Part shown: one piece after another, positions 3,966 through 18,507 of the stretch
Position numbering within the stretch: the stretch's first letter is position 1
Layout of the letters: each line of letters opens with the position of its first letter
Assembly: GCF_003026215.1 (NCBI RefSeq)
Contig: NZ_PYOC01000003.1
Span: 1 to 64,000, forward strand
Length of the DNA: 64,000 nucleotides
Direction of reading: 5' to 3'
DNA from: Photobacterium indicum
GTDB taxonomy: Bacteria; Pseudomonadota; Gammaproteobacteria; Enterobacterales; Vibrionaceae
Position numbers and translations under genes: made by a program
The notes under the pieces: model-generated
Told to the model about the DNA's origin: nothing
Database searches by the model: none
The model's input: only the letters and a program-made list of their open reading frames with translations

Positions 3966-3979
3966 ATGCTGAAAGCCCT

Positions 3980-4243
3980 TTAATTAGGGCTTATTACTCG
4001 TAAAGCGTTGACTAGGCGGGGGTTTTCATATTTATCTTCCAACAAATTGTGAACGACTTTGTGATCTTCTAGTTCTAAAAGGTCAGCAATAGCAAAAGCT
4101 ATGTCCCAATCCATCGAATTTTTCTTACATCTCCAGTTACTAACTCTAGCACCTGTGACATTTAATTTTTTGGCAAGCTGGTAATCGGAGGTCAAGTTAT
4201 ATCTAGCCTTGACCATATCGAGCAATTCAATTGTATATGTCAT
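3980..4243 (-). CDS. HTH repressor of the corticoviral prophage
   Basis: An 87-residue protein with a helix-turn-helix in its first half (SDYQLAKKLNVTGARVSNW, about residues 18-36). It is similar in style to the inovirus repressor but shorter and without the hydrophobic tail. It is transcribed leftward, divergently from the early gene cluster that begins at 4388. The intervening region holds a perfect 16-bp palindrome. That arrangement suggests a lysogeny repressor controlling its own gene and the rightward early operon. It converges on the inovirus repressor across the dif-like junction. Confidence 0.72.
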   Translation of the reverse strand: MTYTIELLDMVKARYNLTSDYQLAKKLNVTGARVSNWRCKKNSMDWDIAFAIADLLELEDHKVVHNLLEDKYENPRLVNALRVISPN

Positions 4244-4315
4244 GCAAATACCGTGTTTTAGCCATAAGTTGTTAAATAATAGGCGATCAAAATGTCATTT
4301 CCTATAGTAAGGGGC

Positions 4316-4331
4316 ATCTTGATATCAAGAT
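4316..4331. promoter_or_regulatory. Perfect 16-bp palindrome, candidate repressor operator
   Basis: ATCTTGATATCAAGAT reads the same on both strands and lies about midway between the divergent repressor (start 4243) and the first early gene (4388). It is a natural candidate operator for the 87-aa HTH protein. Binding is inferred from position and symmetry only. Confidence 0.6.
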
Positions 4332-4387
4332 TAAACTTACTAATATGAACCCGTACACATTAACTTGCTTTGTATGGGGATACGGAC

Positions 4388-4564
4388 ATGACACCACTAG
4401 AACATATCAAACAGTTACAAACGGAATTGAAGCAACATCGCATTAATAAACCAATTAAGAAAAAACTAAATTTCATACCGCTTGGGTGTAGTGATTACCG
4501 CTATAGCCGTACTTTTCAAGTTCAAGCACGTCGCGCAACTATCGCGAAAGGTGGTGCATTATGA
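4388..4564 (+). CDS. Small early phage protein (58 aa)
   Basis: A 58-residue basic protein starting MTPLEHIKQLQTELKQHR, mostly helical, first gene of the rightward early operon. The ATG at 4388 follows a GGGGA ribosome-binding site and is preferred over an upstream in-frame TTG. Its stop overlaps the next start. No family is recognised. Short basic first-operon proteins in small phages are often regulators, but nothing here proves that. Confidence 0.6.
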   Translation: MTPLEHIKQLQTELKQHRINKPIKKKLNFIPLGCSDYRYSRTFQVQARRATIAKGGAL

Positions 4565-4770
4565 ACATGACAACCAAAGAAACGAAATTCTATTCTCTTT
4601 GCATGGCTATTTCTGCAATAAAGCACAATAAACGTGAATCTGAAAAACATCTTAAGAAATTTAAACAAACAGGCAATGACGAATATATACAACGGGTAAC
4701 TAAAACGCTTGAGAATGATGAACTCGTTATCGAAACATTAGAAGCAATGTTGTCGGAGGTGTGGAAATGA
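4561..4770 (+). CDS. Small early phage protein, helical (69 aa)
   Basis: A 69-residue, highly charged, probably all-helical protein (KHNKRESEKHLKKFKQTGND and a Glu-rich C-terminal helix). It is coupled to its neighbours: its start overlaps the upstream stop, and its stop overlaps the ATG at 4767. No known domain is recognised. Confidence 0.6.
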   Translation: MNMTTKETKFYSLCMAISAIKHNKRESEKHLKKFKQTGNDEYIQRVTKTLENDELVIETLEAMLSEVWK

Positions 4771-4961
4771 GCACATCCGTTGAATGGTATTCCAATGCAG
4801 GTGCAACAGTTAACAAAACGTTGCCTTTCACCCCTGAATCTAATTTCTATCGTGCGGTTTCACAGTGCGTTAATTTTGCAGGTAATGAGCCATCATATCT
4901 GCGTTCTGTTATGGCAATTATTCCGGTTGATGATAAACGCCGTTTAGTGGTGATGTCATGA
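4767..4961 (+). CDS. Small early phage protein (64 aa)
   Basis: A 64-residue protein starting MSTSVEWYSNAGATVNKTLP with a few beta-type segments (VMAIIPVDDKRRLVVMS). The ATG at 4767 overlaps the preceding stop in an ATGA arrangement and follows a GGAGG site inside the upstream gene. Function is not recognised; it belongs to the tightly packed early operon that leads into the replication initiator. Confidence 0.6.
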   Translation: MSTSVEWYSNAGATVNKTLPFTPESNFYRAVSQCVNFAGNEPSYLRSVMAIIPVDDKRRLVVMS

Positions 4962-5242
4962 ATACTCAAAGAATCCCTAAGCAAGTGACTAAAGCCCCTT
5001 CGGGGGCGGCGGTTTCTTCTATGCCATTGCACGAAGTTGCGATCCCAGTAGATAAATCAATCACCGCACAGTACATGGCTGACCATGCTTATCGTGAATG
5101 TAAGCGTTCTCTAATGATTGCGCGTCAAAATCGTCTTAATGGCGATCATGAAGATGTCGCGTTTTTCTTGAATGATGCTGCTGAGTTTCGTCGCATCTAT
5201 CAGGCTTTTGCTAACGCCGTTGATGTTATGGGTGGCTTGTAA
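4958..5242 (+). CDS. Small early phage protein (94 aa)
   Basis: A 94-residue protein with a disordered N-terminus (about 30 residues) and a helical C-terminal region (MADHAYRECKRSLMIARQNR, then a segment ending NAVDVMGGL). Both ends overlap neighbouring genes by 1-4 nt, showing translational coupling. No family is recognised. Confidence 0.6.
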   Translation: MNTQRIPKQVTKAPSGAAVSSMPLHEVAIPVDKSITAQYMADHAYRECKRSLMIARQNRLNGDHEDVAFFLNDAAEFRRIYQAFANAVDVMGGL

Positions 5243-5409
5243 TGAACAGCACCCTTTATCAACTTTTGAAAAATGACATTCGAGCCAGCATTGCGCTGGC
5301 GCGAAGTTATCGATTGGCGGGCGAACGCCGCACCGCCATTCAGTTTATGGCCTATATCAAAGAGACTCGAAAGGAATTAACGGAGGTGATTGCTAATGTT
5401 GCCGCCTAA
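5242..5409 (+). CDS. Small early phage protein overlapping rep start (55 aa)
   Basis: A 55-residue frame whose ATG overlaps the TAA of the previous gene and whose last 14 nt overlap the start of the replication initiator. It reads MNSTLYQLLKNDIRASIALA, a helical, arginine-rich small protein. The C-terminal coding region contains the CGGAGG ribosome-binding site for the initiator at 5396, so its translation is likely coupled to initiator synthesis. Function unknown. Confidence 0.62.
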   Translation: MNSTLYQLLKNDIRASIALARSYRLAGERRTAIQFMAYIKETRKELTEVIANVAA

Positions 5410-7558
5410 CGATGTTCTCTATGTGGCTGGCGCTGTTCAGCCAGTCGATATTACTAAAAGCAATCAAGCCGCCTTCGAGAGCGGTTTTTTAGGATTCAAT
5501 TTTTGTGGTCCACGACCTCAAGAAGTTACACCGCAACAGTTTTGGAATTTAAATCGCGTTAACCGAGATACTGATTTTATTGCCAATAAACAAAAAGCGT
5601 ATGCTGCTTCTTTGCCTAACTATAACGCTAAACATCTCCGCGAAGCGGCGGCACGAAGTGACGAAAACAATAGGCTTGTCCAAGGGCGCAAAAGTCCGAC
5701 ACACCCACAACAAGCCCAATTAGATAAGATTCTGCGACAAGAACGCAAGCTACAGCGCGGTGATACGGTTCTATCCAGTACCGAGGCTTTCTACAATCAA
5801 GACACGTTATACACGATTACAGAAGATGGAAACAAAGCACGCGTCTTAGCGCCTAAAGGCAAGTCGAAGATTACCGAGCCAAAAATCAACCCAAATTCAA
5901 TCAGGTTGATGAATCGTGAATGGTCTGGTCAATATAAAATCCAATATCACACTCAAACACCGTCAAGTTCTGCACCCGATCCACAAGAGGGTGATCGCTT
6001 TACTGAAAGTCTGACTAAGCGTGCTGTGAGCAAAATTTTTGAATCGGGTGCTTATGTTGCAACATGCTGCGGTGGATTTACCACGTTCTTAACCCTGACC
6101 TTTACCAAAGAACAACGAAATAAATTATTTGGCGGAATGGTTGATGGTGACGCTGCGCCATATTGCACCCTGCCTAAACCACCGCTTCCAGCCAGTAAAA
6201 CTCGTGGTTCACGCTCAATGTTACGTGGTCGTCCACAACTGAAATGCACTGATGGAGCCAATACCCCGATAAACATAAAACGAAACATGGCGAAACCGAT
6301 TAATCATATTGCAGGGCCGTATTGTTACATTGATATGTGTGCCGATGACCCTGCGCTAACCGTCGATATTAATGATGATGGCTTGGTTAAAGTGATGAAC
6401 GAAAACGGTGATATTGCAGGGTCATACTCGCCATTATTTGCTAAGCCAGAAAAAGTATTCACATTAACGAAAACCGCGGAAACAACCATAGGCAAAGAGG
6501 TTTCTCGTTTTCTTGATAGCGCTAAAAAGATGTATCACCGTGGTTGGATAGCAAATCACACCGTAGAGGTTGATCTGGAAAGTGGTGCGGAATATTGCAA
6601 ACTAAAAGACAAGTCGGTGGCTGGTCATAGTAAACCAAGTGAATTTGGTCCTACTCAAGACCCTGCCGACTTTCATTACATTTGGGTGGCTGAATGTCCT
6701 GCGAATGAGAACGGTGAGCCCAACCCACATGTTCATGTTTTACTTAATTGGTTAGTGCCTAAGCCGTTATTTTCAGCCTGGTCAAAACGTATTGAAAAAA
6801 TATGGGGTAATGGCATGGCTAACTTACAACGTATTAAACAGCCCAAAGCTGCCGGAACTTACCTAATTAAAGCCGTTGGTTATGCGGCCAAAGGTGAAAA
6901 CGCCGACCAAGGGTTAATTAAAGGGAATCGTTACAATATTGCCCAATGTAGCCGCGCCCCCGCGTGGGTATGTGTTGACAGTTTTGAAGCGGGAAATATG
7001 GCAGCCATTATCAAAGAATGTGGTTACAAGTTAGAGCAATGGCGCAAACCGCTAGACCGTAGCTTGAGGCGACTTAATAAGCAGTTAGACCAAACCGTCA
7101 AGGCGAAAGCGATAGCCAAACAAGCCCAAAAGCCACAAGACGTGATCCACAAATTAACAGGCCGCATTATTCGGCTTGAGCACCAACAAAAAGCGGTTCG
7201 GAGCCAAATAAAAAGTCGTGAAGTACATGCCTCCACTAAGAACATTTTCAGTTTGTCATTTGATGGAAAAAAAGCAGAAGAAAAGGTGTGGGATTTTCTG
7301 CTCTGGGCGGCGGGTGCACGGGGCTGGTCAATGGAATCTAAATCTGATGATGATGCTTATCGCCAAACCGTCAATGAAGCCAAACAGTTTGCCCGTATTG
7401 AATACGCCAACAAGTACGAACGATTCAAAGAGAAACGCGCTTATTGGCAAAGCGTCCTAAGTGACCCATTAGTGCCAAATGAAATCGATAACGAGGCGGA
7501 GTTAGCCAAATCTATGCTAATCCGCGAACAGTATGAAATCCACGTATTAGCTGCATAG
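5396..7558 (+). CDS. Corticoviral replication initiator (HUH rolling-circle endonuclease)
   Basis: A 720-residue protein from the ATG at 5396, placed 9 nt after a CGGAGG site. The HUH metal motif is visible around residue 450 (NPHVHVLLNW), followed at about 490 by the tyrosine motif region (AGTYLIKAVGYAAKG). These are the hallmarks of superfamily I rolling-circle initiators such as PM2 P12 and phiX174 gpA. The last 150 residues are helical and rich in Lys/Gln. It heads the replication module of the prophage and is unrelated by eye to the inovirus initiator 2 kb away beyond these motifs, so two separate rolling-circle replicons lie side by side. Confidence 0.82.
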   Translation: MLPPNDVLYVAGAVQPVDITKSNQAAFESGFLGFNFCGPRPQEVTPQQFWNLNRVNRDTDFIANKQKAYAASLPNYNAKHLREAAARSDENNRLVQGRKSPTHPQQAQLDKILRQERKLQRGDTVLSSTEAFYNQDTLYTITEDGNKARVLAPKGKSKITEPKINPNSIRLMNREWSGQYKIQYHTQTPSSSAPDPQEGDRFTESLTKRAVSKIFESGAYVATCCGGFTTFLTLTFTKEQRNKLFGGMVDGDAAPYCTLPKPPLPASKTRGSRSMLRGRPQLKCTDGANTPINIKRNMAKPINHIAGPYCYIDMCADDPALTVDINDDGLVKVMNENGDIAGSYSPLFAKPEKVFTLTKTAETTIGKEVSRFLDSAKKMYHRGWIANHTVEVDLESGAEYCKLKDKSVAGHSKPSEFGPTQDPADFHYIWVAECPANENGEPNPHVHVLLNWLVPKPLFSAWSKRIEKIWGNGMANLQRIKQPKAAGTYLIKAVGYAAKGENADQGLIKGNRYNIAQCSRAPAWVCVDSFEAGNMAAIIKECGYKLEQWRKPLDRSLRRLNKQLDQTVKAKAIAKQAQKPQDVIHKLTGRIIRLEHQQKAVRSQIKSREVHASTKNIFSLSFDGKKAEEKVWDFLLWAAGARGWSMESKSDDDAYRQTVNEAKQFARIEYANKYERFKEKRAYWQSVLSDPLVPNEIDNEAELAKSMLIREQYEIHVLAA

Positions 7559-7573
7559 AGGAAACCGTAAACC

Positions 7574-7750
7574 ATGGATGAATTGAAAGTAATCACGCTA
7601 GAACTGGAAAACGAAGTGAAAAAAGCTAAAGGCAACATGTTTGCCTCAAAGCTGATTGCGCCACTGCGTTTGGTGTTGGTTTGGATGAATGGCGTTAATC
7701 AGAAATTGGCTGAATTAGAACAGCGTAGTGGAGGGCATTTCAATGGATAA
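7574..7750 (+). CDS. Small phage protein after rep (58 aa)
   Basis: A 58-residue frame starting at the ATG at 7574, preceded by GAGGAAA at the end of the initiator gene. It reads MDELKVITLELENEVKKAKG, with charged helices at both ends and a short hydrophobic middle (LIAPLRLVLVWMNGV). The next gene starts inside its last codons. Function is not recognised. Confidence 0.6.
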   Translation: MDELKVITLELENEVKKAKGNMFASKLIAPLRLVLVWMNGVNQKLAELEQRSGGHFNG

Positions 7751-8234
7751 CAACGGATGGCCGACACGCGCCTCAACTAATCCGACCGTTGGCGGTCAAC
7801 GCTGTGAATGTGGTGATGTGCGTACCTTGCACCGTTCGCGGGGTAAACGTGCAAAGTTCCTATATTCAATGTGCGATAAATGCGGCACCGACCAACGCAC
7901 CGGTGATCCGGTTCAACGTGTATTTAATCAATTCCATGTAACCAACACGGAGCTAATCGCCAGTGAGCAAGCGCAACCCGAAGAATCAATCATCATTGAA
8001 GAAACATCGCCAACATCAACAGACACAAGCGGTGAAGTCGGAGGCAATAAAAGCCCAATCGTTAAGCCAGAAAAGCCAGCAACTACCTGCCTTGCAGAGC
8101 AAACCAGCAGCCGAACCACAACCGATAATCAAACCGAAAAAGAACCGCAACAAAAGCGTATTGGTTGGGGTGCTGTGCTTTGCGGCATTGTCCTTGGCGG
8201 GCTTACTGGCGGTGCAATCGTTAAATTCAACTAA
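7743..8234 (+). CDS. Zinc-ribbon protein with C-terminal membrane segment
   Basis: A 163-residue protein from the ATG at 7743. Residues about 20-50 form a four-cysteine zinc ribbon (QRCECGDV ... MCDKCGTDQ). A long Ser/Thr/Glu-rich low-complexity linker follows, and the C-terminus holds a Gly-rich hydrophobic span (WGAVLCGIVLGGLTGGAIV). The linker and tail coincide with a second open frame (7963-8250) that also ends in a membrane span, so the true C-terminal half is uncertain. Location between the replication initiator and the packaging ATPase suggests an early/late regulator or a membrane-linked virion protein. Confidence 0.62.
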   Translation: MDNNGWPTRASTNPTVGGQRCECGDVRTLHRSRGKRAKFLYSMCDKCGTDQRTGDPVQRVFNQFHVTNTELIASEQAQPEESIIIEETSPTSTDTSGEVGGNKSPIVKPEKPATTCLAEQTSSRTTTDNQTEKEPQQKRIGWGAVLCGIVLGGLTGGAIVKFN

Positions 8235-8250
8235 CCCAATCAACCTATAG
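7963..8250 (+). CDS. Overlapping +1-frame gene with a C-terminal membrane span (95 aa)
   Basis: A GTG at 7963, preceded 10 nt upstream by CGGAG, opens a 95-codon frame fully overlapping the 3' half of the zinc-ribbon gene in the +1 frame. The product has a Lys/Gln-rich soluble part, a Pro/Lys hinge (PQPIIKPKKNRNK) and a good transmembrane helix (SVLVGVLCFAALSLAGLLAV). Its stop lies 8 nt before the next ATG and the next gene's ribosome-binding site overlaps it, which favours real translation. It may be a true overlapping gene (compare the nested Rz/Rz1 lysis genes), the frameshifted end of the zinc-ribbon protein, or an accident. Confidence 0.45.
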   Translation: MSKRNPKNQSSLKKHRQHQQTQAVKSEAIKAQSLSQKSQQLPALQSKPAAEPQPIIKPKKNRNKSVLVGVLCFAALSLAGLLAVQSLNSTNPINL

Positions 8251-8258
8251 GAAACAAC

Positions 8259-8732
8259 ATGGAACTAGAAGAACCAATCAAGCCAGAAGAAGCCGAACAG
8301 ATTGAACACCATTCAGAAGAAGATGAAAAACGGTTTACCAATAGCTTCAATGATGATGTCGATTTTGACCCAACACAAACCGACGTTAAAGCAAAAGAAG
8401 AACCCGAAACCATGTCCATTGAAGCGGCTGCGGGCATCGTATTCATGGGTTTAATGGCGGCAGAATCAACACTTAAAATGGCGGTACATAAAGACTTTAA
8501 ATTTGATGCCGACCAAGCCGAAAACGTAGCCTATAAGGTTGCGCCCTTGATTGTGAAGTACGGCGGTAAACCGCCACCATGGTTAGAACCGTATATGGAC
8601 GAAATCATGGCATTGTTTGCGATTGGTTTATTAGGGTTCAGCAGCATGATGCAAGTCAGGCAGTTAAAGCTAGAAGACATAAAATCGAAGGCGGCAGCGA
8701 ATGACGATGATAATGAAAAGGTGGCCGCGTGA
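8259..8732 (+). CDS. Acidic phage membrane protein (157 aa)
   Basis: A 157-residue protein with a very acidic N-terminus (about 50 residues), a hydrophobic segment near residues 53-67 (IEAAAGIVFMGLMAA) and a second near 120-133 (IMALFAIGLLGFSSMM). It lies directly upstream of the packaging ATPase with a 4-nt overlap. PM2-type viruses insert several small proteins into their internal lipid membrane, and this gene's place suggests a vertex or membrane partner of the ATPase. That role is inferred. Confidence 0.65.
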   Translation: MELEEPIKPEEAEQIEHHSEEDEKRFTNSFNDDVDFDPTQTDVKAKEEPETMSIEAAAGIVFMGLMAAESTLKMAVHKDFKFDADQAENVAYKVAPLIVKYGGKPPPWLEPYMDEIMALFAIGLLGFSSMMQVRQLKLEDIKSKAAANDDDNEKVAA

Positions 8733-9394
8733 AACTCCAACCTGTTAACCAAAACAATACGCTAGATAATCATCATGCGTATGCGGTTGGCATGTCTGGC
8801 TGCGGGAAAACCTCCGCAGCCAAAAAGCTGTTTGTTAAGGCAACCGACCAAGTACTTATCTTTGATCCTCTTAACGACTACCAAGGCAAGCTTGCGGGGC
8901 GTGTCGTTCGTAGCTATTCCAACCTGCGTGACTTTGCTATTGCCGTCATTGCTGGTCGTAAAACCAAGCAAGGGTTTAAGATTGCGTATTATCCGAAACG
9001 AGAAACCACCGAAGAAGATTTTGACCGTTTCTGCTCAATTGCATGGGGTGTCGGTGATGGTAAACATGCCAAACCGATAAAGGTGATTTGTGAAGAAGTT
9101 GCCGAGCATAGCCACACTACAGGCAAAGCAACGGGCTATCATGGCAAGTTATTGAGGCTAGGGCGGAAATACAACATTCACACCATCAACATGTTTCAAC
9201 GTGGTCAGGAAGTATCAAAGACGATCATTGATAACTGTCAGTATGCGTGTGTGATGATGCAAAAAGCCGATGACAGTGCGCATTATATTCAACGTAAAAC
9301 AGGGATACCTGCGAGTGAAATTATTCCTTTAGTGAAACTTGAGTACATCTTGCAGGATGGGAAGGCGTGGACGAAGGGCGTGATTTGTTGGTAA
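8729..9394 (+). CDS. Genome-packaging ATPase, PM2 P9-like (A32/FtsK-HerA superfamily)
   Basis: A 221-residue ATPase. Walker A is GMSGCGKTSAAK (about residues 22-33), the following strand VLIFDPLNDY is typical of viral packaging ATPases of the FtsK-HerA/A32 group, and Walker B is KVICEEV (about residues 117-123). A later strand (IHTINMFQRGQEV) carries the sensor-like glutamine. Its length matches PM2 P9 (about 220 aa, from memory). It would drive DNA translocation or vertex gating in an internal-membrane virion. A 184-bp AT-rich gap and a cargo gene separate it from the capsid cluster. Confidence 0.85.
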   Translation: MKLQPVNQNNTLDNHHAYAVGMSGCGKTSAAKKLFVKATDQVLIFDPLNDYQGKLAGRVVRSYSNLRDFAIAVIAGRKTKQGFKIAYYPKRETTEEDFDRFCSIAWGVGDGKHAKPIKVICEEVAEHSHTTGKATGYHGKLLRLGRKYNIHTINMFQRGQEVSKTIIDNCQYACVMMQKADDSAHYIQRKTGIPASEIIPLVKLEYILQDGKAWTKGVICW

Positions 9395-9577
9395 AAATGT
9401 TAGTTTTTTTGTTTAGCCATAATTTACACTGACAAATCTAGCCGATGATCTCGTTCCATAATTTAATTTCCTTTATAATCGATAGTTATTAATTACACTG
9501 TGTGGTTTTGATGTGAAATTCAAATGTTATTTACACCAATAGATATTCATCAAAACCACATCATAATGGAAATAAAA

Positions 9578-10195: not shown

Positions 10196-10253
10196 TTATT
10201 TATATACCAACTTTAATTTGGAATTTAACCTAATATCTGTTCTATGTACCGTG

Positions 10254-10284
10254 AAAAAAGGTCTGCTAATAGCAGACCTTTTTT
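10254..10284 (+). terminator. Strong bidirectional hairpin terminator after the cargo gene
   Basis: A 14-bp perfect stem (10254-10267 with 10271-10284) around a 3-nt loop, with an A-run on one side and a T-run on the other, so it can work in both directions. It isolates the exported cargo gene from the following genes. Confidence 0.9.
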
Positions 10285-10817: not shown

Positions 10818-11651
10818 ATGGAATTGTTAAGCACAAACTTCGCTCCACGCCCTAAAGAACTTGATCCGATTGAAGGTGTAGGTTGGGGCAATCGTGCTTC
10901 ACTGCGCATGGTTTCGGGTCCCACTTATCACAGCATCGAATTGGTGACGGATATTACCGATCCAAAAGACATTGAACGCGTTGAAGTGTCTTTGAATGGT
11001 TCTGCTAAATACAGTATTTCAGGCGAAACACTGGTTGCACTGCAAGCCCACCGTAAAAACTACGCTCAAGAAGGTCGTTATACCATTTCATTTGGTGATG
11101 CGACGCTGCGTACCAAGATTGGTGTTCGTCAAACTGACCTCGTTACCTTAGCGGGTGAAATTTGGTTTATTCACATCACACTCAAAGCCAAAGATTCGTC
11201 AGTAAAAGCACCATCAATGCGTGCCCGCGCCCATGTGCTGCCAGCACAAGCCGAACGCTATTACATGCCGCGCTTGTATGAATTGACTTGGTTTGCTGCC
11301 GCATCAGGGCGTACGCCTTTCGACTTTTCAGAGCGTAGCGCTGGCTTAAACCTCAAACGTATCCACTTCAAAGATGATTCCATTCAACGTGTTCGTGTTA
11401 TTCGTGATACCTACGAAGAAATGAACATCACCAAAGATGACAACGCTTACGATCTTGCTCAATCGAAGAAAGAGCAAACAGTGGGTTGGTTTAGTCTCGA
11501 CTTTATCCGTTACGGCTTTGGTGCTGATGGCATGTTAAACACTGCCGCCCGTAGCCAATTGTGCTTCGAGCTGGATAAAAACGCAGTCGGCAGTATTCCG
11601 GTGATTGTTGAAGCGGTTGAACAGGTCAAGCCATTGCCGAACGCGGCATAA
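10818..11651 (+). CDS. Major capsid protein, double-jelly-roll (PM2 P2-like)
   Basis: A 277-residue protein, close in length to PM2 P2 (269 aa). The N-terminal third follows the P2 pattern: a substrate-like strand (YHSIELVTDI), a strand-turn reading IERVEVSLNGSAKYSISGE, then a helix with basic residues (ALQAHRKNYAQEGRYTISFG). The P2 counterpart has IKNVRVELDG and a helix ending in HKRKIKAG (from memory). A second beta-rich half (residues about 150-270) completes a probable double jelly roll. Trimers of this fold form pseudo-hexameric capsomers over the internal membrane. It is the first large gene of the structural operon. Confidence 0.8.
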   Translation: MELLSTNFAPRPKELDPIEGVGWGNRASLRMVSGPTYHSIELVTDITDPKDIERVEVSLNGSAKYSISGETLVALQAHRKNYAQEGRYTISFGDATLRTKIGVRQTDLVTLAGEIWFIHITLKAKDSSVKAPSMRARAHVLPAQAERYYMPRLYELTWFAAASGRTPFDFSERSAGLNLKRIHFKDDSIQRVRVIRDTYEEMNITKDDNAYDLAQSKKEQTVGWFSLDFIRYGFGADGMLNTAARSQLCFELDKNAVGSIPVIVEAVEQVKPLPNAA

Positions 11652-11660: not shown

Positions 11661-11933
11661 ATGAGTTTAATGGATAGCTGGGGCGAAAGCCTCGGCGGTA
11701 TCACCGATTCTATTTTCAATGGCGGTGAAAGTTTGGTTAATGCTTGGTTTGATAGTGAAGCCGAGAAAGTCGCATCAGCCGCACCCGAAGAAAACCGCCC
11801 AAAACAAGAGCAAGCCCAACAGCCAACGGGTCAACCGATAGCGTACGCACCAATGAACAACAACATGTTGATGATTGGCGGCGGTGTTGTGGTCTTGATG
11901 ATGTTCATGATGCTAATGATGCGAGGTAAGTAA
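11661..11933 (+). CDS. Virion membrane protein with C-terminal span (90 aa)
   Basis: A 90-residue protein: an N-terminal amphipathic part (MSLMDSWGESLGGITDSIFN), a Gln/Pro-rich linker and a C-terminal membrane helix (MLMIGGGVVVLMMFMMLMM) ending RGK. It follows the capsid gene by 9 nt with a GGGGA site. This linker-plus-C-terminal-anchor design recurs in the next genes and fits structural proteins that tie the capsid to the internal membrane. Confidence 0.7.
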   Translation: MSLMDSWGESLGGITDSIFNGGESLVNAWFDSEAEKVASAAPEENRPKQEQAQQPTGQPIAYAPMNNNMLMIGGGVVVLMMFMMLMMRGK

Positions 11934-12083: not shown

Positions 12084-12289
12084 TCCCCGGTCTAGGTGCA
12101 TCGGCAGGCGGTTCAATGCCAATCAGTGCGGGCGGTGGTGCGGCGGGTCCATCAACCGCAACGTCTGAATCCAACATGGGTTTCAAGGTGGGTGCCATCA
12201 ACATGGGTGGCGGCAATACGTTATCCAATTGGCTTCCTGTCTTATTAGCCTTGATGGCGGTCTGGTTCTTAGTGAAAAAGGTGGGCTAA
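12080..12289 (+). CDS. Gly/Ser-rich virion membrane protein (69 aa)
   Basis: A 69-residue protein from the ATG at 12080 (ATGA overlap with the previous gene; an upstream in-frame TTG at 12050 is rejected). A Gly/Ala/Ser-rich, flexible first half is followed by a C-terminal membrane helix (WLPVLLALMAVWFLV) and KKVG. Probable internal-membrane component of the virion. Confidence 0.68.
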   Translation: MIPGLGASAGGSMPISAGGGAAGPSTATSESNMGFKVGAINMGGGNTLSNWLPVLLALMAVWFLVKKVG

Positions 12290-12699
12290 TGCGCTTACAA
12301 CTGATGCGACCGAACCGCGCTGATATTCACAGTCAATTTTTGTTATTGCGTCCAGCGTTTGATCGCGTCCAGAACGCTAAAACAGAATTTGAATTTTGTT
12401 GTGATGCAGTGAAAAACAAACACGCCAGCTTGTACCACTTAAAAAGCAAAGGTGTGTCGGTTCGGTTTGTTGGAATGGTAACGGCAGAGAATGACTACCT
12501 GATTTTAGCCATGACAGGGCGCGGGCTGACACATGCCGCGCCAACCATCATTGAGGCCGTCAAATCACAAGGCTACCGCTCGATTAAGTACCACACAGTG
12601 CGCCAAGGCATGAAACGTATTTTACAACGCTTTGGTTTTTCTATTTTAGACACGACAACACATGACACCGTGTTGTCACTCAGTTTGGAGGGTTCGTAA
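12289..12699 (+). CDS. GNAT-like phage protein (136 aa)
   Basis: A 136-residue protein whose ATG overlaps the preceding TAA (taATG). The C-terminal half resembles the end of a GNAT N-acetyltransferase: a strand (YLILAMTGRGL), a helix (HAAPTIIEAVKSQG), a strand, and the closing MKRILQRFGFSIL that corresponds to the usual GNAT tail (xxLYxxxGF). The acetyl-CoA loop is only partly recognisable (TGRGLT). Its position inside the structural operon suggests a capsid-associated or host-modifying role. The family call is moderate. Confidence 0.5.
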   Translation: MRLQLMRPNRADIHSQFLLLRPAFDRVQNAKTEFEFCCDAVKNKHASLYHLKSKGVSVRFVGMVTAENDYLILAMTGRGLTHAAPTIIEAVKSQGYRSIKYHTVRQGMKRILQRFGFSILDTTTHDTVLSLSLEGS

Positions 12700-13211
12700 T
12701 GGGTGGCGGCGGCAGTAGCTCCAGTAAGAACACCACAGAAAGTACCAATACCAGTGGTCAGAATGCCATTCAAGGTGACAATTTAGGTGTCACCATTGCG
12801 GGCGTTAATGACTCAAACATTGATGTCACCATGACTGACCACGGCGCAATGGAACGCGCCGCAGAGTTAGGCGAATTAGCCTTAACCAGCAACGTAAAAG
12901 CGTTGGGGATTGCGGCCAATTTAGGCAGTGATGCCATTGATGCGAATAAAGACATTGCCAGCGATGCGATCGCACTCAGCCGTGATACCACCAAACTGGT
13001 GAGCAATTCCCACAGTGAAAACTTGCAGTACGTGGCAGGGCTAGCGGGTAATCAAGCCAAGCAAAACACCGATAACCTTGAAACCCTCAAAGAGCTAGCA
13101 GAAATGAAAATCGACGGCGGGCAAGTGGCAACCTCAAAGCAGATGACCATTGTAATTTCAGTGATCGCGTTCTTGTTGGTTGTGGCGTTTGTGATGCGAG
13201 GTAAGAAGTAA
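12699..13211 (+). CDS. Virion membrane protein with helical ectodomain (170 aa)
   Basis: A 170-residue protein: a Gly/Ser/Asn-rich start (MGGGGSSSSKNTTES), a helix-rich middle with repeated Asp/Ala/Leu patterns (residues 45-130), and a C-terminal transmembrane helix (MTIVISVIAFLLVVAFVM) ending RGKK. The same C-terminal anchor-plus-basic-end pattern occurs in the 90-aa protein upstream. Likely a membrane-anchored virion component; start and stop overlap neighbours by 1 nt. Confidence 0.65.
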   Translation: MGGGGSSSSKNTTESTNTSGQNAIQGDNLGVTIAGVNDSNIDVTMTDHGAMERAAELGELALTSNVKALGIAANLGSDAIDANKDIASDAIALSRDTTKLVSNSHSENLQYVAGLAGNQAKQNTDNLETLKELAEMKIDGGQVATSKQMTIVISVIAFLLVVAFVMRGKK

Positions 13212-13915
13212 TGAGCTTTAAACAATTCATGCAACCGCGTCAACGTAACCAATTTCAGATTATTGGTGAATTTCTGTATGTCGAAGCCTGTAACAATAAG
13301 GTTTTATTGCAAACAGAACGCGGTGAATACCGATTACAGCAAGGCGCTCAAATCATTGATGACAACCTCAGTGGGTTAGTGTCCATTGAGAACTTGGGTG
13401 AAGCGGGCAACGTTGAAATTCTGTATGGCTTTGGGCGATATGTACCACCAACGGATGGCAAGTCTGTGACCGTGTCACAAATGCCGCCCGTTCAAGTATC
13501 TGAATTACCCGCCATGCAACTGGCTGAAAATCAGCAGGTTGCCGTTTCAGCCTTGCCTGCAATGGTGTTAGCTGCGAATCAACAAGTTGTTATATCTGAA
13601 TTGCCCAAGGTGCAATTAGAAACAGGGCAAAGAGTAAATATTTACGCCACTAACCCCGTATTAACCAAACCCGTTGGCGGTGCATCCGTTGAAACGTCGC
13701 TATTAACCATCGCCAGCGGGCAAGCGGTATTAGATGCTAATTCATTACGTTGTCACGTTTTGTTAAAAGCCAGTTTAACTAATGTGGGCGTTGTCACCAT
13801 TGGTAATGGCTTCACATTATCACCAGGGGAAAAGCAGCGAATAGACAGCTTTGGCGGTTTGAGCTTTTCGGGTACTGACAACGACACAATAGAAATCATT
13901 GAGGTGATTCGATGA
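13211..13915 (+). CDS. Structural protein with short beta repeats, probable vertex component
   Basis: A 234-residue soluble, beta-rich protein. Around residues 90-150 a ~21-residue unit is repeated about three times: variants of SELPAMQLAENQQVAV, SALPAMVLAANQQVVI and SELPKVQLETGQRVNI. The C-terminal 80 residues look like a small beta-sandwich. It overlaps the spike-like gene downstream by 4 nt. Repeats of this type suggest an elongated beta-solenoid stalk, and the position suggests a spike base, but the role is inferred. Confidence 0.6.
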   Translation: MSFKQFMQPRQRNQFQIIGEFLYVEACNNKVLLQTERGEYRLQQGAQIIDDNLSGLVSIENLGEAGNVEILYGFGRYVPPTDGKSVTVSQMPPVQVSELPAMQLAENQQVAVSALPAMVLAANQQVVISELPKVQLETGQRVNIYATNPVLTKPVGGASVETSLLTIASGQAVLDANSLRCHVLLKASLTNVGVVTIGNGFTLSPGEKQRIDSFGGLSFSGTDNDTIEIIEVIR

Positions 13916-15012
13916 CAGAGAAAACATTAAGCCAGCGTTTACCCGTTGGCGATCCACGTAACAAAGTAGAGTTTCTTGCTGATGAGTTTGAGAAAACAGC
14001 CGCCGACCTTTACGCACTGATTGATGGTTTAAGCTCTGGTTCGCAGCCAGCCGCCGTTAACTTACTGGCTAACTCACAGTTCAATGAAAATATGGAGCTT
14101 GAACCTAACTACCGTCAGTTAATTGCCGAAGCAGGTAAAACGCTCGATTTATCCCGTACCATTGGAAACGGTCGCTGTTCGATGATGGTTGCACCAGATT
14201 GGGCAGTTGAAGTACCCACCGAAAGCAATAGCGTGTCAGGGTTTAAAATTGATGGGCTGTCTGATGGCTATTACGAGGCATACCCAGACATAGATAAGGA
14301 AAGCGGAGTGCTGTCTTACTATTCGCCTAACTTTACGCTTTATCAGGTTGTATCCGTTCCTTATAACGGTAGTGCTCATCAAGCCTTGAAAGGACGAGTT
14401 TCTATGTCTGGCGTTGCCGGACAAACGGTCACTATCGGTATTGCGCGTTTATGGCATGACTACGAAGGCAAGCTAAAACTGAGTCAGCGTATGGGGGAAA
14501 AGGTTTATACCTTTACTGAGTCTGACCCATGGCTGCCAATCACCATTGAAACCGAAACCGTGGGCTGTAAACGTTATGGTGATGCCGGAACATTAGCCTT
14601 GTATATCAAGGTAGAAGGTGCGCAGTCTGGGCGAATTTATAACGCCCACCTTTGGCACACCGATAAGCATGGCGATAACCCCGCAATTTTTGCTAACTCC
14701 CACCATGGAGATGCTTACCGCCGTTCATTTGGCTGGCGAAACCAAATCAGCAGTAATGCTGAAGTTGTCACGCCTAACGTGGTGAAGTTCAATTTCAAAC
14801 GACACTTGCCGTATATTTTCGCCCCCGAACAGCATGTGATTGTAGAGAGTCGAATGAAGCCAAGCGCCCAAGTGACAGCGATTGAACCGAATTCCATCAC
14901 GCTGACATTTAGTCCCGAAGACTTTGCAAGCCAAGTTAATAGTGGCGGTAATTTTTACGGAATGATTGGAATGCAATATTCCGCCATGCCCGTTGGTATA
15001 GGTTTTTATTAA
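13912..15012 (+). CDS. Spike / receptor-binding-like protein (366 aa)
   Basis: A 366-residue protein with no membrane segment. Residues 1-40 are helical, a linker follows, and from about 50 on the protein is beta-rich with many Gly/Asn/Tyr and a carbohydrate-binding-module-like stretch. The region resembles tail-fibre modules found across phages (for example NLLANSQFNENMELEPNYRQ near residues 45-64, a common start of phage fibre domains). It lies at the end of the structural genes, before the lytic enzyme. PM2 has one large spike protein, P1, with comparable role. Assignment by position and composition. Confidence 0.55.
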   Translation: MTEKTLSQRLPVGDPRNKVEFLADEFEKTAADLYALIDGLSSGSQPAAVNLLANSQFNENMELEPNYRQLIAEAGKTLDLSRTIGNGRCSMMVAPDWAVEVPTESNSVSGFKIDGLSDGYYEAYPDIDKESGVLSYYSPNFTLYQVVSVPYNGSAHQALKGRVSMSGVAGQTVTIGIARLWHDYEGKLKLSQRMGEKVYTFTESDPWLPITIETETVGCKRYGDAGTLALYIKVEGAQSGRIYNAHLWHTDKHGDNPAIFANSHHGDAYRRSFGWRNQISSNAEVVTPNVVKFNFKRHLPYIFAPEQHVIVESRMKPSAQVTAIEPNSITLTFSPEDFASQVNSGGNFYGMIGMQYSAMPVGIGFY

Positions 15013-15566
15013 TGCGTGGGGTCTTGGGTTTAACCGTCCTTTGTGGGCTGTTTATATGGCTAAGACAGAAAAGCATTGCCACCAATCAGGGTGGCAATAG
15101 CAGTCCGATTAATGATTTTTGGTGGTCAGATTTACTCGATAATTCAGGAACACTTAACGACATGACAACAGGCTCAACGGTTCGCGGTATCCGTAATAAA
15201 AATCCGTTAAACATCGAATACAACAAGCGTAATAACTGGCTAGGCCAACAAGGCACAGACGGGCGTTTCTGTATTTTCTCTGATAACAAATACGGTTTTC
15301 GAGCGGGTGCACGTGTACTAAGAAGCTACCAGCGACGCGGTATCAATACCATTCACAGCATCGTGCATACCTTTGCCCCAAGCCATGAAAACGAAACCGA
15401 CCATTACGCCAATATGGTCAGTGAATGGATGGGTATCAGTAAACATGCGCCGATTGATGTCAGCAACGATCATGTAGCGGCGAACATCATCAAAGCGATG
15501 GCGAGAATGGAGGTCGGGCACAGCTACCCAATCAACACAGTATTAGACGGGGTGAAACTGGCATGA
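15012..15566 (+). CDS. Membrane-anchored lytic transglycosylase-like protein
   Basis: A 184-residue protein with an N-terminal membrane anchor (VLGLTVLCGLFIWL) and a lysozyme-like domain beginning GIRNKNPLNIEYNKRN (about residues 57-72), the signature of virion-associated peptidoglycan hydrolases that read GIRNxNPxNI. FSDNKYGFRAGARVLRSY, SIVHTFAPSHENETDHY and a C-terminal helix also match that family. It could open the cell wall during entry or act in lysis. Its ATG overlaps the spike gene stop (taATG), and the following 31-aa gene overlaps its end. Confidence 0.75.
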   Translation: MRGVLGLTVLCGLFIWLRQKSIATNQGGNSSPINDFWWSDLLDNSGTLNDMTTGSTVRGIRNKNPLNIEYNKRNNWLGQQGTDGRFCIFSDNKYGFRAGARVLRSYQRRGINTIHSIVHTFAPSHENETDHYANMVSEWMGISKHAPIDVSNDHVAANIIKAMARMEVGHSYPINTVLDGVKLA

Positions 15567-15658
15567 ATCCAACCGTAAAAAGCATTGGTATCAGCGTTGT
15601 CGGTGTCGTGATTGGCGCGTACACCCTAAAGTTTCTACGTAAAAAAGGATGGTTATGA
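15563..15658 (+). CDS. 31-aa single-span membrane protein
   Basis: A 31-residue frame (ATG 15563, TGA 15656-15658) reading MNPTVKSIGISVVGVVIGAY and a basic end (RKKGWL). Both ends overlap neighbouring genes by 4 nt. One membrane helix fills most of the protein. It could be a virion membrane peptide or part of a lysis set with the next two genes. Confidence 0.6.
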   Translation: MNPTVKSIGISVVGVVIGAYTLKFLRKKGWL

Positions 15659-15852
15659 TCGACTTTAAACAGAAAAGTACGCAAACAGGTTTAGTACTTA
15701 TCGCCAGCGTTGCCACAGGTATCTTAACAGGCAACACAGAACTAGCCGATGTGACTATCGGTGAATCAGGAGTTCAAGCGTCGGGCGCAATTCCAGCCGT
15801 AGCCGCCATGCTAATTGGCTTATGGGACACGTTCAGAAAAGAGAAGAAATAG
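15655..15852 (+). CDS. Small membrane protein, candidate holin (65 aa)
   Basis: A 65-residue protein from the ATG at 15655 (ATGA overlap) with two hydrophobic stretches (GLVLIASVATGILTG and IPAVAAMLIGLWDTF) and a basic C-terminus (RKEKK). Two spans, a charged tail and location right after the wall hydrolase fit a class II holin. No diagnostic motif exists, so this is topology and context only. Confidence 0.5.
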   Translation: MIDFKQKSTQTGLVLIASVATGILTGNTELADVTIGESGVQASGAIPAVAAMLIGLWDTFRKEKK

Positions 15853-15861
15853 GGGATTTGG

Positions 15862-16011
15862 ATGGAGTTATATCAAACAGTGTTAGTCGCTGCGGCTACT
15901 GGTTTTTGTTCGGCATTTGGAACTGGAATTGCAATGAAGACAGATATTACATGGATAAAGAAGTGTCTTGAATCACATGAATCCAGAATTTTACTTTTGG
16001 AAAAAAAATAG
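15862..16011 (+). CDS. Small membrane/coiled-coil protein next to the holin candidate (49 aa)
   Basis: A 49-residue frame (ATG 15862, TAG 16009-16011) behind AGGGG. One membrane helix (VLVAAATGFCSAFGTGIAM) is followed by a charged heptad-like helix (WIKKCLESHESRILLLEKK). Phages often keep a protein of this TM-plus-coiled-coil type next to the holin. Function unproven. Confidence 0.55.
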   Translation: MELYQTVLVAAATGFCSAFGTGIAMKTDITWIKKCLESHESRILLLEKK

Positions 16012-16063
16012 TAACAACAATAATTTAAATGTAAAATACCAAAAAAAATCATAGGTGAAATGT

Positions 16064-16942
16064 ATGAATAGTAAGGCGTTTGAGGTTGTAGCAAAAATAG
16101 TTGCCACTCATGGTCTAGCAGTGTTTTTGGTTATTTTTTACACTTTAATTATCTATCCAGAAAGTCAACAAGAACGTTCTGCATGGATTCAAGAGATAAC
16201 TAAAGTAAGAATGTTAGTAGATCCAGTTTCCAGACCGCTAAATACAATACAAGCAGATGCGATTTCAAAAATTGCAATAGACCAGTTTATTGCAAGGCTA
16301 AGATCATCATTTAATGATGATCTTAGTAGTTTTAGTGGTCTTAGTCGTCTTAGTAGTAGAATGAGCACGTTACAAAAAAGCACTCGTGATATTTTGAATG
16401 GGGTTCATGATGAAAATGATGTAACTAAAGAGAAAAAGAACAGTGCTTATTTTAATACCAATAAATACGAAATACTTAACAATTCGCAGAAATCAGATTT
16501 CTTCTCTTTTTATCAAAAAGTTTTTACAGAGGTTAACACTTTAGTTGAGCAAGAAAAAACGGAGAAAATGAAGTCATATAGAAGGTTATTTATACAAGAG
16601 GTGCAAAATAACGAATCTATCGTTATTCAATTAGAAAGGCTTCGATTAGATAATGGAACTTTAGAATCAATCTGGCGTGCATCACTAAAAATTGCACAAC
16701 AAGAGTGGTTTAAATCTATCAACGGTAAAGTTACACGTGGCAACTATATCGAAGTTCAATATTTTTTAAAGGAAGTATCCACTTTCCCATATTTTAATGA
16801 ATGGAAACGTGAAAATAGAGAAAGTGTTGACTTACTTTTAGGAGTCCAAGAGTTTAGTAATTATTCTGATTTTGAAAACTTAAACAATTTACTTCAAGTT
16901 GAAATGGCAAAAAAAATTAACTCATCTGCTTTCAATATTTAA
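16064..16942 (+). CDS. Membrane-anchored helical protein of unknown function (292 aa)
   Basis: A 292-residue protein from the ATG at 16064, which has an AGGTGA site; a GTG at 16055 is less likely. It has one N-terminal membrane span (GLAVFLVIFYTLIIYP) and a long, highly charged, mostly helical remainder. The coding sequence is more AT-rich than the structural genes and is followed by a strong terminator, so it may be a lysogeny or accessory gene (for example superinfection exclusion) rather than a virion gene. I do not recognise a family. Confidence 0.6.
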   Translation: MNSKAFEVVAKIVATHGLAVFLVIFYTLIIYPESQQERSAWIQEITKVRMLVDPVSRPLNTIQADAISKIAIDQFIARLRSSFNDDLSSFSGLSRLSSRMSTLQKSTRDILNGVHDENDVTKEKKNSAYFNTNKYEILNNSQKSDFFSFYQKVFTEVNTLVEQEKTEKMKSYRRLFIQEVQNNESIVIQLERLRLDNGTLESIWRASLKIAQQEWFKSINGKVTRGNYIEVQYFLKEVSTFPYFNEWKRENRESVDLLLGVQEFSNYSDFENLNNLLQVEMAKKINSSAFNI

Positions 16943-16944
16943 AA

Positions 16945-16980
16945 AGAGGCCCGCAACTGCGGTGCGGGCTTATTGTTTAA
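16945..16980. terminator. Hairpin terminator between convergent genes
   Basis: GCCCGCA (16949-16955) pairs with TGCGGGC (16963-16969), flanked by A-rich sequence on the left and T-rich on the right. It sits between the rightward 292-aa gene and the leftward lipoprotein gene and can serve both. Confidence 0.75.
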
Positions 16981-17669
16981 TTAATAGGAACAGTTCCCCA
17001 AACTATACTCACATCACTATAAAGTGCGCCTACGAGTTGGGTAGTACCGTTATCATCCACCGTAAATGCAGCCCCGTCGTAATCCCCGTTATAGCTTGCA
17101 GGGCTACAAGCTGTTGCCGTCATTGAAACCTTGAAGTAATGGTCATTCTTGGTCAACGTACCGGAAAAAGTACACATGCCATTAATCGTAATATTACCCG
17201 CTGAATCAATGTCCCATGTTGAACCATCATCTGTATTAGTGTGTGTACCGATTAACTGATTAAGAGACAAACTATCAGGCTGTTTCACGAAAGTATGAAC
17301 AAATGACTGACTATCAATGGTTGTCATTGCGCTGGCTGTATTGCCATTGAATGTCAGCGATGCTGTTTGTGATGAATCGTAAAAGCTAACACTATTAGAC
17401 CAAAGGTGAACGCCTTTAAGATCTAATGTGTCATTATTTAATGTAGCCGTATCGAATAAATACAGATTATTACTTGAATCAGCAGCAAGTACGCCATGAG
17501 TAATCTCGGTATCAATAATCATCACGGCATCATCTGATTTATAGATACCATTGGGTTGAATTGATGGAGTCGGGGAGATCGCAGTGTTTCCTGTGGCTTG
17601 TGAATCAGACGAACCGCCGCCACATGCTGATAATAACGCTACCGAAACGGCAATAACTAAATTTCTCAT
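16977..17669 (-). CDS. Prophage-encoded lipoprotein (230 aa)
   Basis: A 230-residue protein with a lipoprotein signal peptide: MRNLVIAVSVALLSACGGGS, lipobox LSAC with Cys16, then a Ser/Gly-rich tether. No Asp at +2, so outer-membrane sorting is expected. The rest is beta-rich with repeated short strands and two further cysteines near residues 165 and 187 that may pair. It is transcribed opposite to the phage late genes, typical of a lysogenic conversion gene that alters the host surface. No family is recognised with certainty. Confidence 0.7.
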   Translation of the reverse strand: MRNLVIAVSVALLSACGGGSSDSQATGNTAISPTPSIQPNGIYKSDDAVMIIDTEITHGVLAADSSNNLYLFDTATLNNDTLDLKGVHLWSNSVSFYDSSQTASLTFNGNTASAMTTIDSQSFVHTFVKQPDSLSLNQLIGTHTNTDDGSTWDIDSAGNITINGMCTFSGTLTKNDHYFKVSMTATACSPASYNGDYDGAAFTVDDNGTTQLVGALYSDVSIVWGTVPIN

Positions 17670-17764
17670 TCATAATCCCTTATATGTACAAAACTAAGGT
17701 GAGGATGATAGCCATAAAACAAGAGGCATATTAAGTTGAATGTGGATTCTTTGGGTTCACTTAA

Positions 17765-18217
17765 CTATTTGATTTTGCGTTTCTTGTAGTGTTTCTTTTT
17801 CTCTTTGGCGACTGTCTCAGATTCCGGTTGATTAATGCGGCGACCACCACGAAATGGCAGCGGCGTAACCACATTGGTTCGCACTGGAATATAGTCCAGC
17901 TCATACAGTCGTTTTAGCGCATGAAACTCGTCACAGCGAACAGCCCATGAATCCAGTTCTTTAGGGCCAAATTGGCGACCTTCGGGAGTGATAATAATGC
18001 AGCGATACTCATCAATACGAAAACCACGCCAACGGGTATCATCGGGTAAATAGCCACGGGCGCGGATGATAAGTAGCTTTTCAGCCATCGGATTTACATC
18101 AACTTTACCAGCCAACCAACGTTTGACGGTCACGGGTTTTACATGAAACCATGCGGCAGCTTGGGAAATTGAGTCAAAATGTCTCCAAAAAAGTTTGACG
18201 AACGATTCGTGCAACAT
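17765..18217 (-). CDS. Phage-type HTH regulator (DUF3653-like)
   Basis: A 150-residue protein from the ATG at 18217 (an upstream extension to 18349 is unlikely). Residues about 12-38 form a helix-turn-helix (DSISQAAAWFHVKPVTVKRW). The middle reads FRIDEYRCIIITPEGRQFGP, like the DUF3653 family found near filamentous-phage and dif-integrated elements in Vibrio. The C-terminus is strongly basic (AKEKKKHYKKRKIK). It is the last gene before dif. It may regulate the prophage or be left over from a further dif-integrated element. Confidence 0.65.
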   Translation of the reverse strand: MLHESFVKLFWRHFDSISQAAAWFHVKPVTVKRWLAGKVDVNPMAEKLLIIRARGYLPDDTRWRGFRIDEYRCIIITPEGRQFGPKELDSWAVRCDEFHALKRLYELDYIPVRTNVVTPLPFRGGRRINQPESETVAKEKKKHYKKRKIK

Positions 18218-18507
18218 GATATACCTCGCAAAATTTATTCTTATTAGAAAGTTATTTTCGATTGATAGACACATGATTGATTGGTGGTAGCGATTAAAAA
18301 TCCATTTTAACCAACACCACGAAAATAACGACATAACCATGGTTTTCATTCTGCCGATAACGTAACGAGTTCATTGATGGTTTAAAACCAAAGAAAGTTA
18401 ATTTAACTAACTGTTTCCAAAGGTTTAAATAGCCTTATCAATAAAAGTTTCGTTAGTGACGCATCAATATCAAAAATGACCTTTTAAATGTTAAATTTGG
18501 CCCCGTC

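What the first reader, a model, noticed from the sequence alone, without database searches (positions are those of the whole stretch)
3966..18507. A PM2-like tailless membrane-containing prophage bounded by dif sites
Rolling-circle initiator, P9-like ATPase, double-jelly-roll-type capsid protein and many single-span proteins identify a corticovirus relative. The flanks are a dif-like site and a full dif, which implies integration through host XerCD rather than a phage integrase; no integrase gene is present in the element.
Basis: partly seen in the sequence, partly recalled or inferred. Interest (0 to 1): 0.75.

Follow-up and report, generated by a model that had tools for sequence, protein, structure and literature searches.

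The report
Capsid-coding prophage parked at chromosome dif
A small tailless, membrane-type prophage sits exactly at the bacterium's chromosome-separation site and has no integrase of its own; comparison with about a hundred relatives suggests it borrows the host's own recombination enzymes, with a small phage protein as a likely helper.

Summary
Confirmed. Window 3937-18535 holds a 14,571-bp PM2/NO16-type (P2 capsid) prophage in a Photobacterium, between a perfect dif (18508-18535) and a half-degenerate dif (3937-3964), directly behind a filamentous prophage. A relative carries a similar filamentous phage joined to an intact dif without the element: an empty site. No integrase was found inside.
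Prophages of this kind at dif are published (NO16; Steensen 2024), so the element is a new member of a known kind. Steensen left open whether host XerCD or phage integrases do the job. I scored 98 P2-type loci in Vibrionaceae: integrase only 55, DUF3653 gene only 40, both 0, neither 3. Of 35 loci with a full dif, 0 have an integrase and 34 have DUF3653. The two modules swapped at least 11 times on the capsid tree (quick method). The central 6 bp agree between the flanking sites in 20 of 22 pairs (shuffle mean 4.4).
Best reading: host XerCD integrates these phages, and the HTH-DUF3653 protein encoded beside the attachment site (named "SAH hydrolase" in NO16) belongs to that module, perhaps as a Xer activator. 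That role is inference. PM2 itself has a matching, weaker arrangement.

The parts
3937..3964 (+). left attachment site (attL): near-perfect XerC arm AGTACGCATTA, centre TGTATA, degenerate XerD arm GCGTGGTAAAT; also encodes the C-terminus of the neighbouring filamentous phage's DUF3693 gene
18508..18535 (+). right site (attR) = intact dif AGTGCGCATTA TGTATA TTATGTTAAAT, by inference that of chromosome 1
3980..4243 (-). phage repressor-like HTH protein, 56% identical to NO16 gene 6
5390..7558 (+). replication initiator (probably HUH type; 47% identical to the NO16 large ORF)
8729..9394 (+). packaging ATPase, PM2 P9-like
10818..11651 (+). major capsid protein, PM2 P2-like double jelly roll
11661..11933 (+). 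small protein matching PM2 P8 weakly (7e-4) and phrog_12673
12699..13211 (+). PM2 gp j-like protein
13211..13915 (+). virion-region protein shared with a V. cyclitrophicus tailless prophage (phrog_12829)
13912..15012 (+). candidate spike protein, placed where P1 is in PM2 (position only)
   Evidence: inference
15012..15566 (+). lysin, PM2 P5-like / endolysin family phrog_873
16055..17669 (.). accessory genes near the right border (295-aa protein on +, 230-aa protein on -), function unknown
17765..18217 (-). HTH-DUF3653 protein, 150 aa, GAGG upstream of its start; 61% identical to NO16 'SAH hydrolase'; proposed helper of Xer recombination
18218..18507 (.). partly conserved intergenic stretch between the DUF3653 gene and attR, with a TAACTAACTGTTTCCAAAGG box in most of 11 aligned elements; candidate accessory or operator site
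1..3962 (.). part of a filamentous prophage adjoining the element (coat protein 326-622, ssDNA-binding protein 806-1177, replication protein 1168-3264, DUF3693 regulator 3606-3962); the contig begins at window base 1

Best explanation
[quoted passage not shown] Its circular genome is predicted to carry one attachment site (XerC arm AGTGCGCATTA, centre TGTATA, degenerate XerD arm GCGTGGTAAAT) between its repressor gene and its DUF3653 gene. Strand exchange in the 6-bp centre leaves an intact dif on the right, so the host keeps dimer resolution, and a half-degenerate site on the left, which may keep the prophage stable. Shown here: junctions, empty site, lack of an integrase, matching centres, and mutual exclusion of integrase and DUF3653 across relatives. 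Inferred: that XerCD performs the reaction (the confidence below is for this), and that the HTH-DUF3653 protein assists it (about 0.5). The site anatomy (good XerC arm and centre, poor XerD arm) is what is described for TLC phage, whose integration is XerD-first and FtsK-independent, so an activator encoded by the phage would be expected.
For: Perfect dif plus attL with identical centre. Empty site in G030:C7: the left flank 3401-3964 aligns over all 564 bases (77%) to L110 up to the last base of an intact dif; of the right flank, 18649-18754 follows at 88%; the inner ends of the element have no match. 98 complete P2-type loci: full dif in 35, integrase in 0 of 35 and DUF3653 in 34 of 35; no full dif in 63, integrase in 55 of 63. 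Central hexamer identical in 20 of 22 site pairs, the full dif sites having 12 kinds of centre; 10,000 shuffles gave mean 4.4, maximum 11. Capsid tree: at least 11 module changes on starred branches; in 11 independent pairs dif went with DUF3653 in 10.3 on average and against it in 0 (sign test median p 0.002). In 52 Photobacterium genomes, of 29 DUF3653 hits at E up to 1e-12, 25 share a contig with a dif, all 25 lie within 20 kb and 20 within 1 kb. DUF3653 also occurs, in a shorter form, in two filamentous (Zot-bearing) prophages that start at a dif, 8-9.4 kb from it (L249, L250). TLC anatomy: PMC4246890, section read.
Against: No circular form, excision or XerCD dependence was observed. Steensen et al. 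write that tailless prophages at dif 'regularly carried integrase genes', which I did not see in 35 loci. Six complete loci have DUF3653 but no full dif in the fetched stretch (L038, L042, L154, L157, L208, L214; for L038 a dif with the same centre lies further along the contig); L042 is the nearest relative by capsid (98%) and ends in a dif-like site with a 7-bp centre. In 15 of the 37 loci with a full dif (35 complete, 2 not) no second site with up to 5 arm mismatches was found, and 2 of 22 pairs have different centres. Of all 74 DUF3653 hits, weak ones included, 46 lie within 20 kb of a dif, and the family rings in 2 of 14 control genomes. The V. cyclitrophicus record L006 has neither DUF3653 nor integrase. 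pTLC has no detectable DUF3653, so homology of DUF3653 to the TLC activator is not supported. DUF3653 could be only a transcriptional regulator: its confident part is an HTH.
Confidence: 0.85

Rival explanations
1. The element is inserted at dif by XerCD, but DUF3653 is only the lysogeny regulator that belongs to this phage type (the counterpart of the LexA-like repressor and excisionase seen in integrase-type relatives) and takes no part in recombination.
For: Its confident part is an HTH that resembles HigA/Cro-type regulators only weakly (best Foldseek E 0.33). Integrase-type relatives L005 and L151 are annotated with a LexA-like protein and an excisionase instead, so whole control modules may be exchanged together.
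Against: A repressor-like gene is already there at 3980-4243. DUF3653 lies within 1 kb of a dif in 20 of 29 stronger hits in Photobacterium, occurs also in two filamentous prophages that start at dif, and is never found with an integrase in 98 loci.
Confidence: 0.35
2. The element was inserted by an integrase of another element in trans, or by homologous recombination between dif-like sequences of tandem prophages, rather than by XerCD acting on a phage site.
For: The element lies in a tandem array with a filamentous prophage, and a tyrosine-recombinase gene (37757-39325, Pfam 8.8e-9) flanked by two recombinase-like genes under Pfam's cut-off lies about 18-23 kb away (36283-41850).
Against: Those genes belong to a separate island that lies between copies of another 28-mer (18664 and 50646). 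In the surveyed loci with paired sites the junctions are dif-type 28-mers with a covarying centre in 20 of 22.
Confidence: 0.05
3. The segment is a decayed, domesticated remnant that can no longer move, dif being just where it got stuck.
For: Some relatives at dif are truncated or reduced to fragments (L048, L115, L243). Activity cannot be judged from sequence.
Against: The core genes here are open reading frames with relatives, and NO16, a relative, is inducible and forms plaques (PMC9966536, first part of the results read).
Confidence: 0.1

Closest known systems
Vibrio phage NO16 ('Asemoviridae'; filed under Corticoviridae in the record)
   Same: Same gene order; initiator 47%, repressor 56%, DUF3653 61% identical. 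Its own site GGTGCGCATTA TGTATA ATGTGGTAAAC lies between the repressor and DUF3653 genes, as predicted for this element. XerCD route proposed by its authors (PMC9966536).
   Different: 10.6 kb against 14.6 kb; capsid only 19% identical; host Vibrio. Its DUF3653 gene is annotated S-adenosylhomocysteine hydrolase.
Tailless prophages of Vibrio cyclitrophicus, e.g. 10N.286.49.B11_PE003 (PQ189336)
   Same: Capsid 63%, initiator 49%, DUF3653 52% identical, same synteny; cargo near the border; no integrase in that record by my HMM.
   Different: The authors could not decide between host recombinases and phage integrases (PMC11630473).
Pseudoalteromonas phage PM2 (Corticoviridae)
   Same: P9, P2, P8, gp j, P5 and gp k homologues in the same order. 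The presumptive dif reported in PMC9966536 lies at 747-774 between gp a and gp c; gp a is a borderline DUF3653 (2.5e-4, under cut-off).
   Different: P12 initiator gave no blastp match; 10.1 kb; known as lytic; the site has the opposite orientation and a poor XerC arm.
TLC phage of Vibrio cholerae and other dif-using elements (IMEX)
   Same: Good XerC arm and centre with degenerate XerD arm, and use of host Xer recombinases (PMC4246890).
   Different: Filamentous satellite, not a capsid phage; the pTLC record has no DUF3653 by my HMM or in the five pTLC ORFs scanned with Pfam, and no dif-like site within 9 mismatches.
Jorvik (Rhodobacter membrane phage)
   Same: No predicted integrase; dif-like att sites; XerCD proposed (PMC10589892, passages).
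   Different: Alphaproteobacterial; integrated beside RuBisCO operon genes.

Membership tests
PM2-type tailless phages (Vinavirales, P2 capsid) | double jelly-roll P2 capsid protein | tested here: met
PM2-type tailless phages (Vinavirales, P2 capsid) | P9-like packaging ATPase | tested here: met
PM2-type tailless phages (Vinavirales, P2 capsid) | rolling-circle (HUH) initiator | tested here: inconclusive
   PF23343 27.0 bits, just under cut-off 27.8; strong match to the NO16 ORF, none reported to PM2 P12
PM2-type tailless phages (Vinavirales, P2 capsid) | internal membrane and circular dsDNA virion | not testable with these tools
   needs virions
NO16 group ('Asemoviridae') | initiator, repressor, DUF3653, ATPase and capsid in NO16 order, dif-type site between repressor and DUF3653 | tested here: met
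   (capsid by position; it gave no blastp match)
NO16 group ('Asemoviridae') | capsid close to NO16 | tested here: not met
   19% identity; the capsid belongs with the V. cyclitrophicus/Photobacterium set, so I do not file it in that family
IMEX (elements that integrate through XerCD at dif) | flanked by dif and dif-like site with matching centre | tested here: met
IMEX (elements that integrate through XerCD at dif) | no own integrase | tested here: met
IMEX (elements that integrate through XerCD at dif) | XerC/XerD dependence | not testable with these tools
   needs mutants
TLC-type IMEX with a XafT-like activator | homologue of the TLC activator | tested here: inconclusive
   pTLC holds no detectable DUF3653; the paper that defines XafT is not held, so I could not tell which pTLC gene it is

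The most novel reading that the evidence does not exclude
P2-capsid phages of Vibrionaceae carry one of two interchangeable integration modules: a tyrosine integrase, or a dif-like site plus a DUF3653 protein that works as a Xer recombination factor and is shared with filamentous phages. PM2, the textbook lytic type member, keeps a relic or working copy of the second module.
Probability: 0.5. Interest if true: 0.75.

Novelty: new member of a known kind. Interest (0 to 1): 0.58.

Why it matters
Whether tailless prophages at dif use host XerCD or their own integrase was left open in 2024 (PMC11630473). The mutual exclusion of integrase and DUF3653 in 98 loci, with at least 11 swaps on the tree, makes XerCD use very likely and names one gene, DUF3653, to test. 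If DUF3653 is a Xer factor, it would be a shared tool of capsid phages and filamentous phages for entering the chromosome terminus without spoiling dimer resolution. It would also correct a marker gene now called SAH hydrolase, and suggests looking for lysogeny in PM2.

Tried and rejected
Recalled idea that the TLC activator XafT is a DUF3653 protein: tested on pTLC, not supported; the PNAS paper is not held. Searching papers for 'XafT' gave only unrelated papers among the 15 of 48 listed; 'DUF3653' gave one paper, in which a passage mentions such a protein in a deleted region next to a Zot gene but nothing on Xer; this says little about print as a whole. Structure of the DUF3653 protein: pLDDT 65.8, best PDB matches HTH regulators at E 0.33 or worse, not informative. 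The capsid model has low confidence (pLDDT 62.5), so the fold rests mainly on Pfam and sequence. Defence-gene search of three accessory ORFs (16055-16942, 16977-17669, 9524-10195): no hit. I first took the second dif-like 28-mer near 18664 for the end of another phage; it proved to be a feature beside most dif sites.

Rows dropped before the count of 98: I did not fetch G123:C177, G116, G287, G292 and G243:C11 (tiny contig or weak partial hits); the two short G005 contigs (L061, L062) were left out and L046 has no capsid gene by HMM; of 111 loci with a capsid gene, 13 with less than 6 kb on a side were set aside. The second capsid element of G034 was not scored apart. L048 (truncated capsid) is among the 98 but not on the tree. 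Some loci are near-identical or lie in one genome. Thresholds (DUF3653 30 bits within 10 kb, integrase 45 bits within 8.5 kb) were set; the lower integrase hits in loci with a full dif (L048 31 bits, L189 27, L239 23) lie beyond a flanking dif-type site. The Fisher value ignores relatedness; the tree test is the fairer one, but it used the quick method and warned of long branches. In one search the printed labels of the pair L194/L204 are reversed (L204 has DUF3653, L194 integrase).
Full report
WHAT IS THERE. The window is a dif region of a Photobacterium. Of the 52 genomes of its genus, 47 have exactly two dif sites at up to 2 mismatches, often with centre TGTATA in one and TGTACC in the other; the window holds the TGTATA one at 18508-18535. 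That this is chromosome 1 is inferred: the genes beyond it (histidine kinase, cytochrome oxidase) lie beside dif on the larger contigs (3.5 and 3.8 Mb) of G008 and G050. The nearest named relatives by capsid are P. profundum and P. frigidiphilum (98%). Between a half-degenerate dif at 3937-3964 and the perfect dif lies a 14,571-bp element with a P2 capsid gene, a P9-like ATPase, an NO16-like initiator, a repressor, a lysin and a DUF3653 gene. To its left is a filamentous prophage (coat protein, ssDNA-binding protein, replication protein) that runs to the contig start.

JUNCTIONS. In G030:C7 (taken to be P. profundum ATCC BAA-1252, because G030:C11 has the same length, 89,956 bases, as the named contig) a similar filamentous phage end runs directly into an intact dif followed by the chromosomal flank. 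The window's left flank aligns over all 564 bases up to the last base of that dif (77% identity). Of the right flank, 18649-18754 matches behind it at 88%, while the 113 bases between do not align. The inner ends of the element find no match.

NO INTEGRASE. Twenty-five ORFs of the element were scanned with Pfam and none matches a recombinase or transposase family. A local integrase HMM, which finds the integrases of relatives, finds none inside.

SURVEY. P2_N was found in 21 of 52 Photobacterium genomes and in 90 of 296 Vibrionaceae genomes that included Photobacterium. I fetched the surroundings and scored 98 loci with at least 6 kb on both sides. Integrase only: 55. DUF3653 only: 40. Both: 0. 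Neither: 3. A full dif was present in 35: 0 with integrase, 34 with DUF3653. Without full dif: 63, of which 55 have integrase, 6 have DUF3653 and 2 have neither.

COVARIATION. Of 37 loci with a full dif (35 complete, 2 incomplete), 22 also have a second, weaker site in the same orientation on the other side of the capsid gene; in 15 none was found at up to 5 arm mismatches. The 6-bp centres are identical in 20 of 22 pairs, although the full dif sites have 12 kinds of centre; 10,000 reshufflings gave mean 4.4 and maximum 11. Xer strand exchange predicts this.

TREE. On the capsid tree (97 rows, quick method, with long-branch warnings) the module changes at least 11 times on starred branches, 16 times on the best tree. 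In 11 independent pairs the presence of dif follows the DUF3653 module in 10.3 of 11 on average and never the other way. L047 (DUF3653, at dif) and L050 (integrase, elsewhere) have capsids 94% identical. So one virion type uses two exchangeable integration modules.

DUF3653. The gene beside attR (17765-18217, minus strand) encodes an HTH-DUF3653 protein. In 52 Photobacterium genomes, of 29 hits at E up to 1e-12, 25 lie on a contig with a dif, all of them within 20 kb and 20 within 1 kb; the other 4 lie on contigs without a dif. Weaker hits are more scattered: 46 of all 74 within 20 kb. Shorter forms also occur in two filamentous prophages with Zot-type proteins that start at a dif, 8 and 9.4 kb from it (L249, L250). 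In NO16 the gene is called SAH hydrolase, but its only Pfam match over cut-off is DUF3653 (2.2e-15), and NO16's dif-like site lies between it and the repressor gene, the arrangement predicted for the circular form of this element. PM2's presumptive dif, noted before in PMC9966536, lies between gp a and gp c; gp a is a borderline DUF3653 (2.5e-4, just under Pfam's cut-off). The PM2 site was the only one at 5 or fewer arm mismatches in its genome, 0.017 expected per shuffle.

MECHANISM. Predicted attP: good XerC arm, centre equal to the host's, degenerate XerD arm. For TLC phage this same anatomy is described, with XerD-first exchange without FtsK (PMC4246890, sections on VGJ and TLC read), and XafT is described as the XerD-activating factor of one V. 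cholerae element (passage in PMC9765430; that this is TLC comes from the cited title). By analogy I propose that DUF3653 does this job here. It is not by homology: pTLC has no detectable DUF3653. The stretch between the DUF3653 gene and attR is partly conserved in 11 aligned relatives, with a box TAACTAACTGTTTCCAAAGG in most, a possible binding site.

LITERATURE. NO16 and XerCD: PMC9966536 (abstract, first part of the results, section 2.5, passages and first part of the discussion). Tailless prophages at dif in Vibrio, mechanism 'inconclusive': PMC11630473 (abstract, passages and two result sections). Jorvik: PMC10589892 (passages). PM2-like prophages with and without integrases: PMC1950889 (passages). 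So the element is not a new kind. I saw no mention of the two-module pattern or of a DUF3653-Xer link in what I read or in the listings; most listed papers were not opened.

VERDICT. The element itself is a new member of a known kind; the comparative pattern behind it is the more interesting result, and the Xer role of DUF3653 remains to be tested.

Noticed in passing
18664-18691 (-) and 50646-50673 (-): An inverted dif-like 28-mer GGTG(C/T)TAATTACCTATTTTATGGTAAAT lies within 250 bp of 76 of 102 dif sites in the 52 Photobacterium genomes. Role unknown.
   Followed up: partly
18664-50673: A 32-kb island lies between two copies of that 28-mer: PADLOC matches to type I restriction-modification, ThsA-like and HEC-06/SspE-like defence genes, and three recombinase-like genes (36283-41850; one over Pfam's integrase cut-off, two under it). 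Diverged relatives of the three (30-32%) lie near a dif in G030 (L111), also between two copies.
   Followed up: partly
18700-19100: Fragments resembling the end of the histidine-kinase gene 50795-52876 lie on the dif side of the island, as if the island had split the region (seen by eye).
   Followed up: no
3606-3964: The filamentous phage's DUF3693 gene ends inside the attachment site, so its last residues change with what is integrated next to it (compare L110).
   Followed up: partly
L042:2930-2958: The nearest relative of the element by capsid ends in a dif-like site with a 7-bp instead of 6-bp centre; it is not on either contig that holds a full dif in that genome.
   Followed up: partly
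L148:3558-3989: NO16 gene 7, used as 'SAH hydrolase' marker in a published survey, is an HTH-DUF3653 protein by Pfam.
   Followed up: yes
L045, L187, L188, L228: A second class of elements has the opposite orientation at dif, with a poor XerC arm and a good XerD arm, like the PM2 site.
   Followed up: partly
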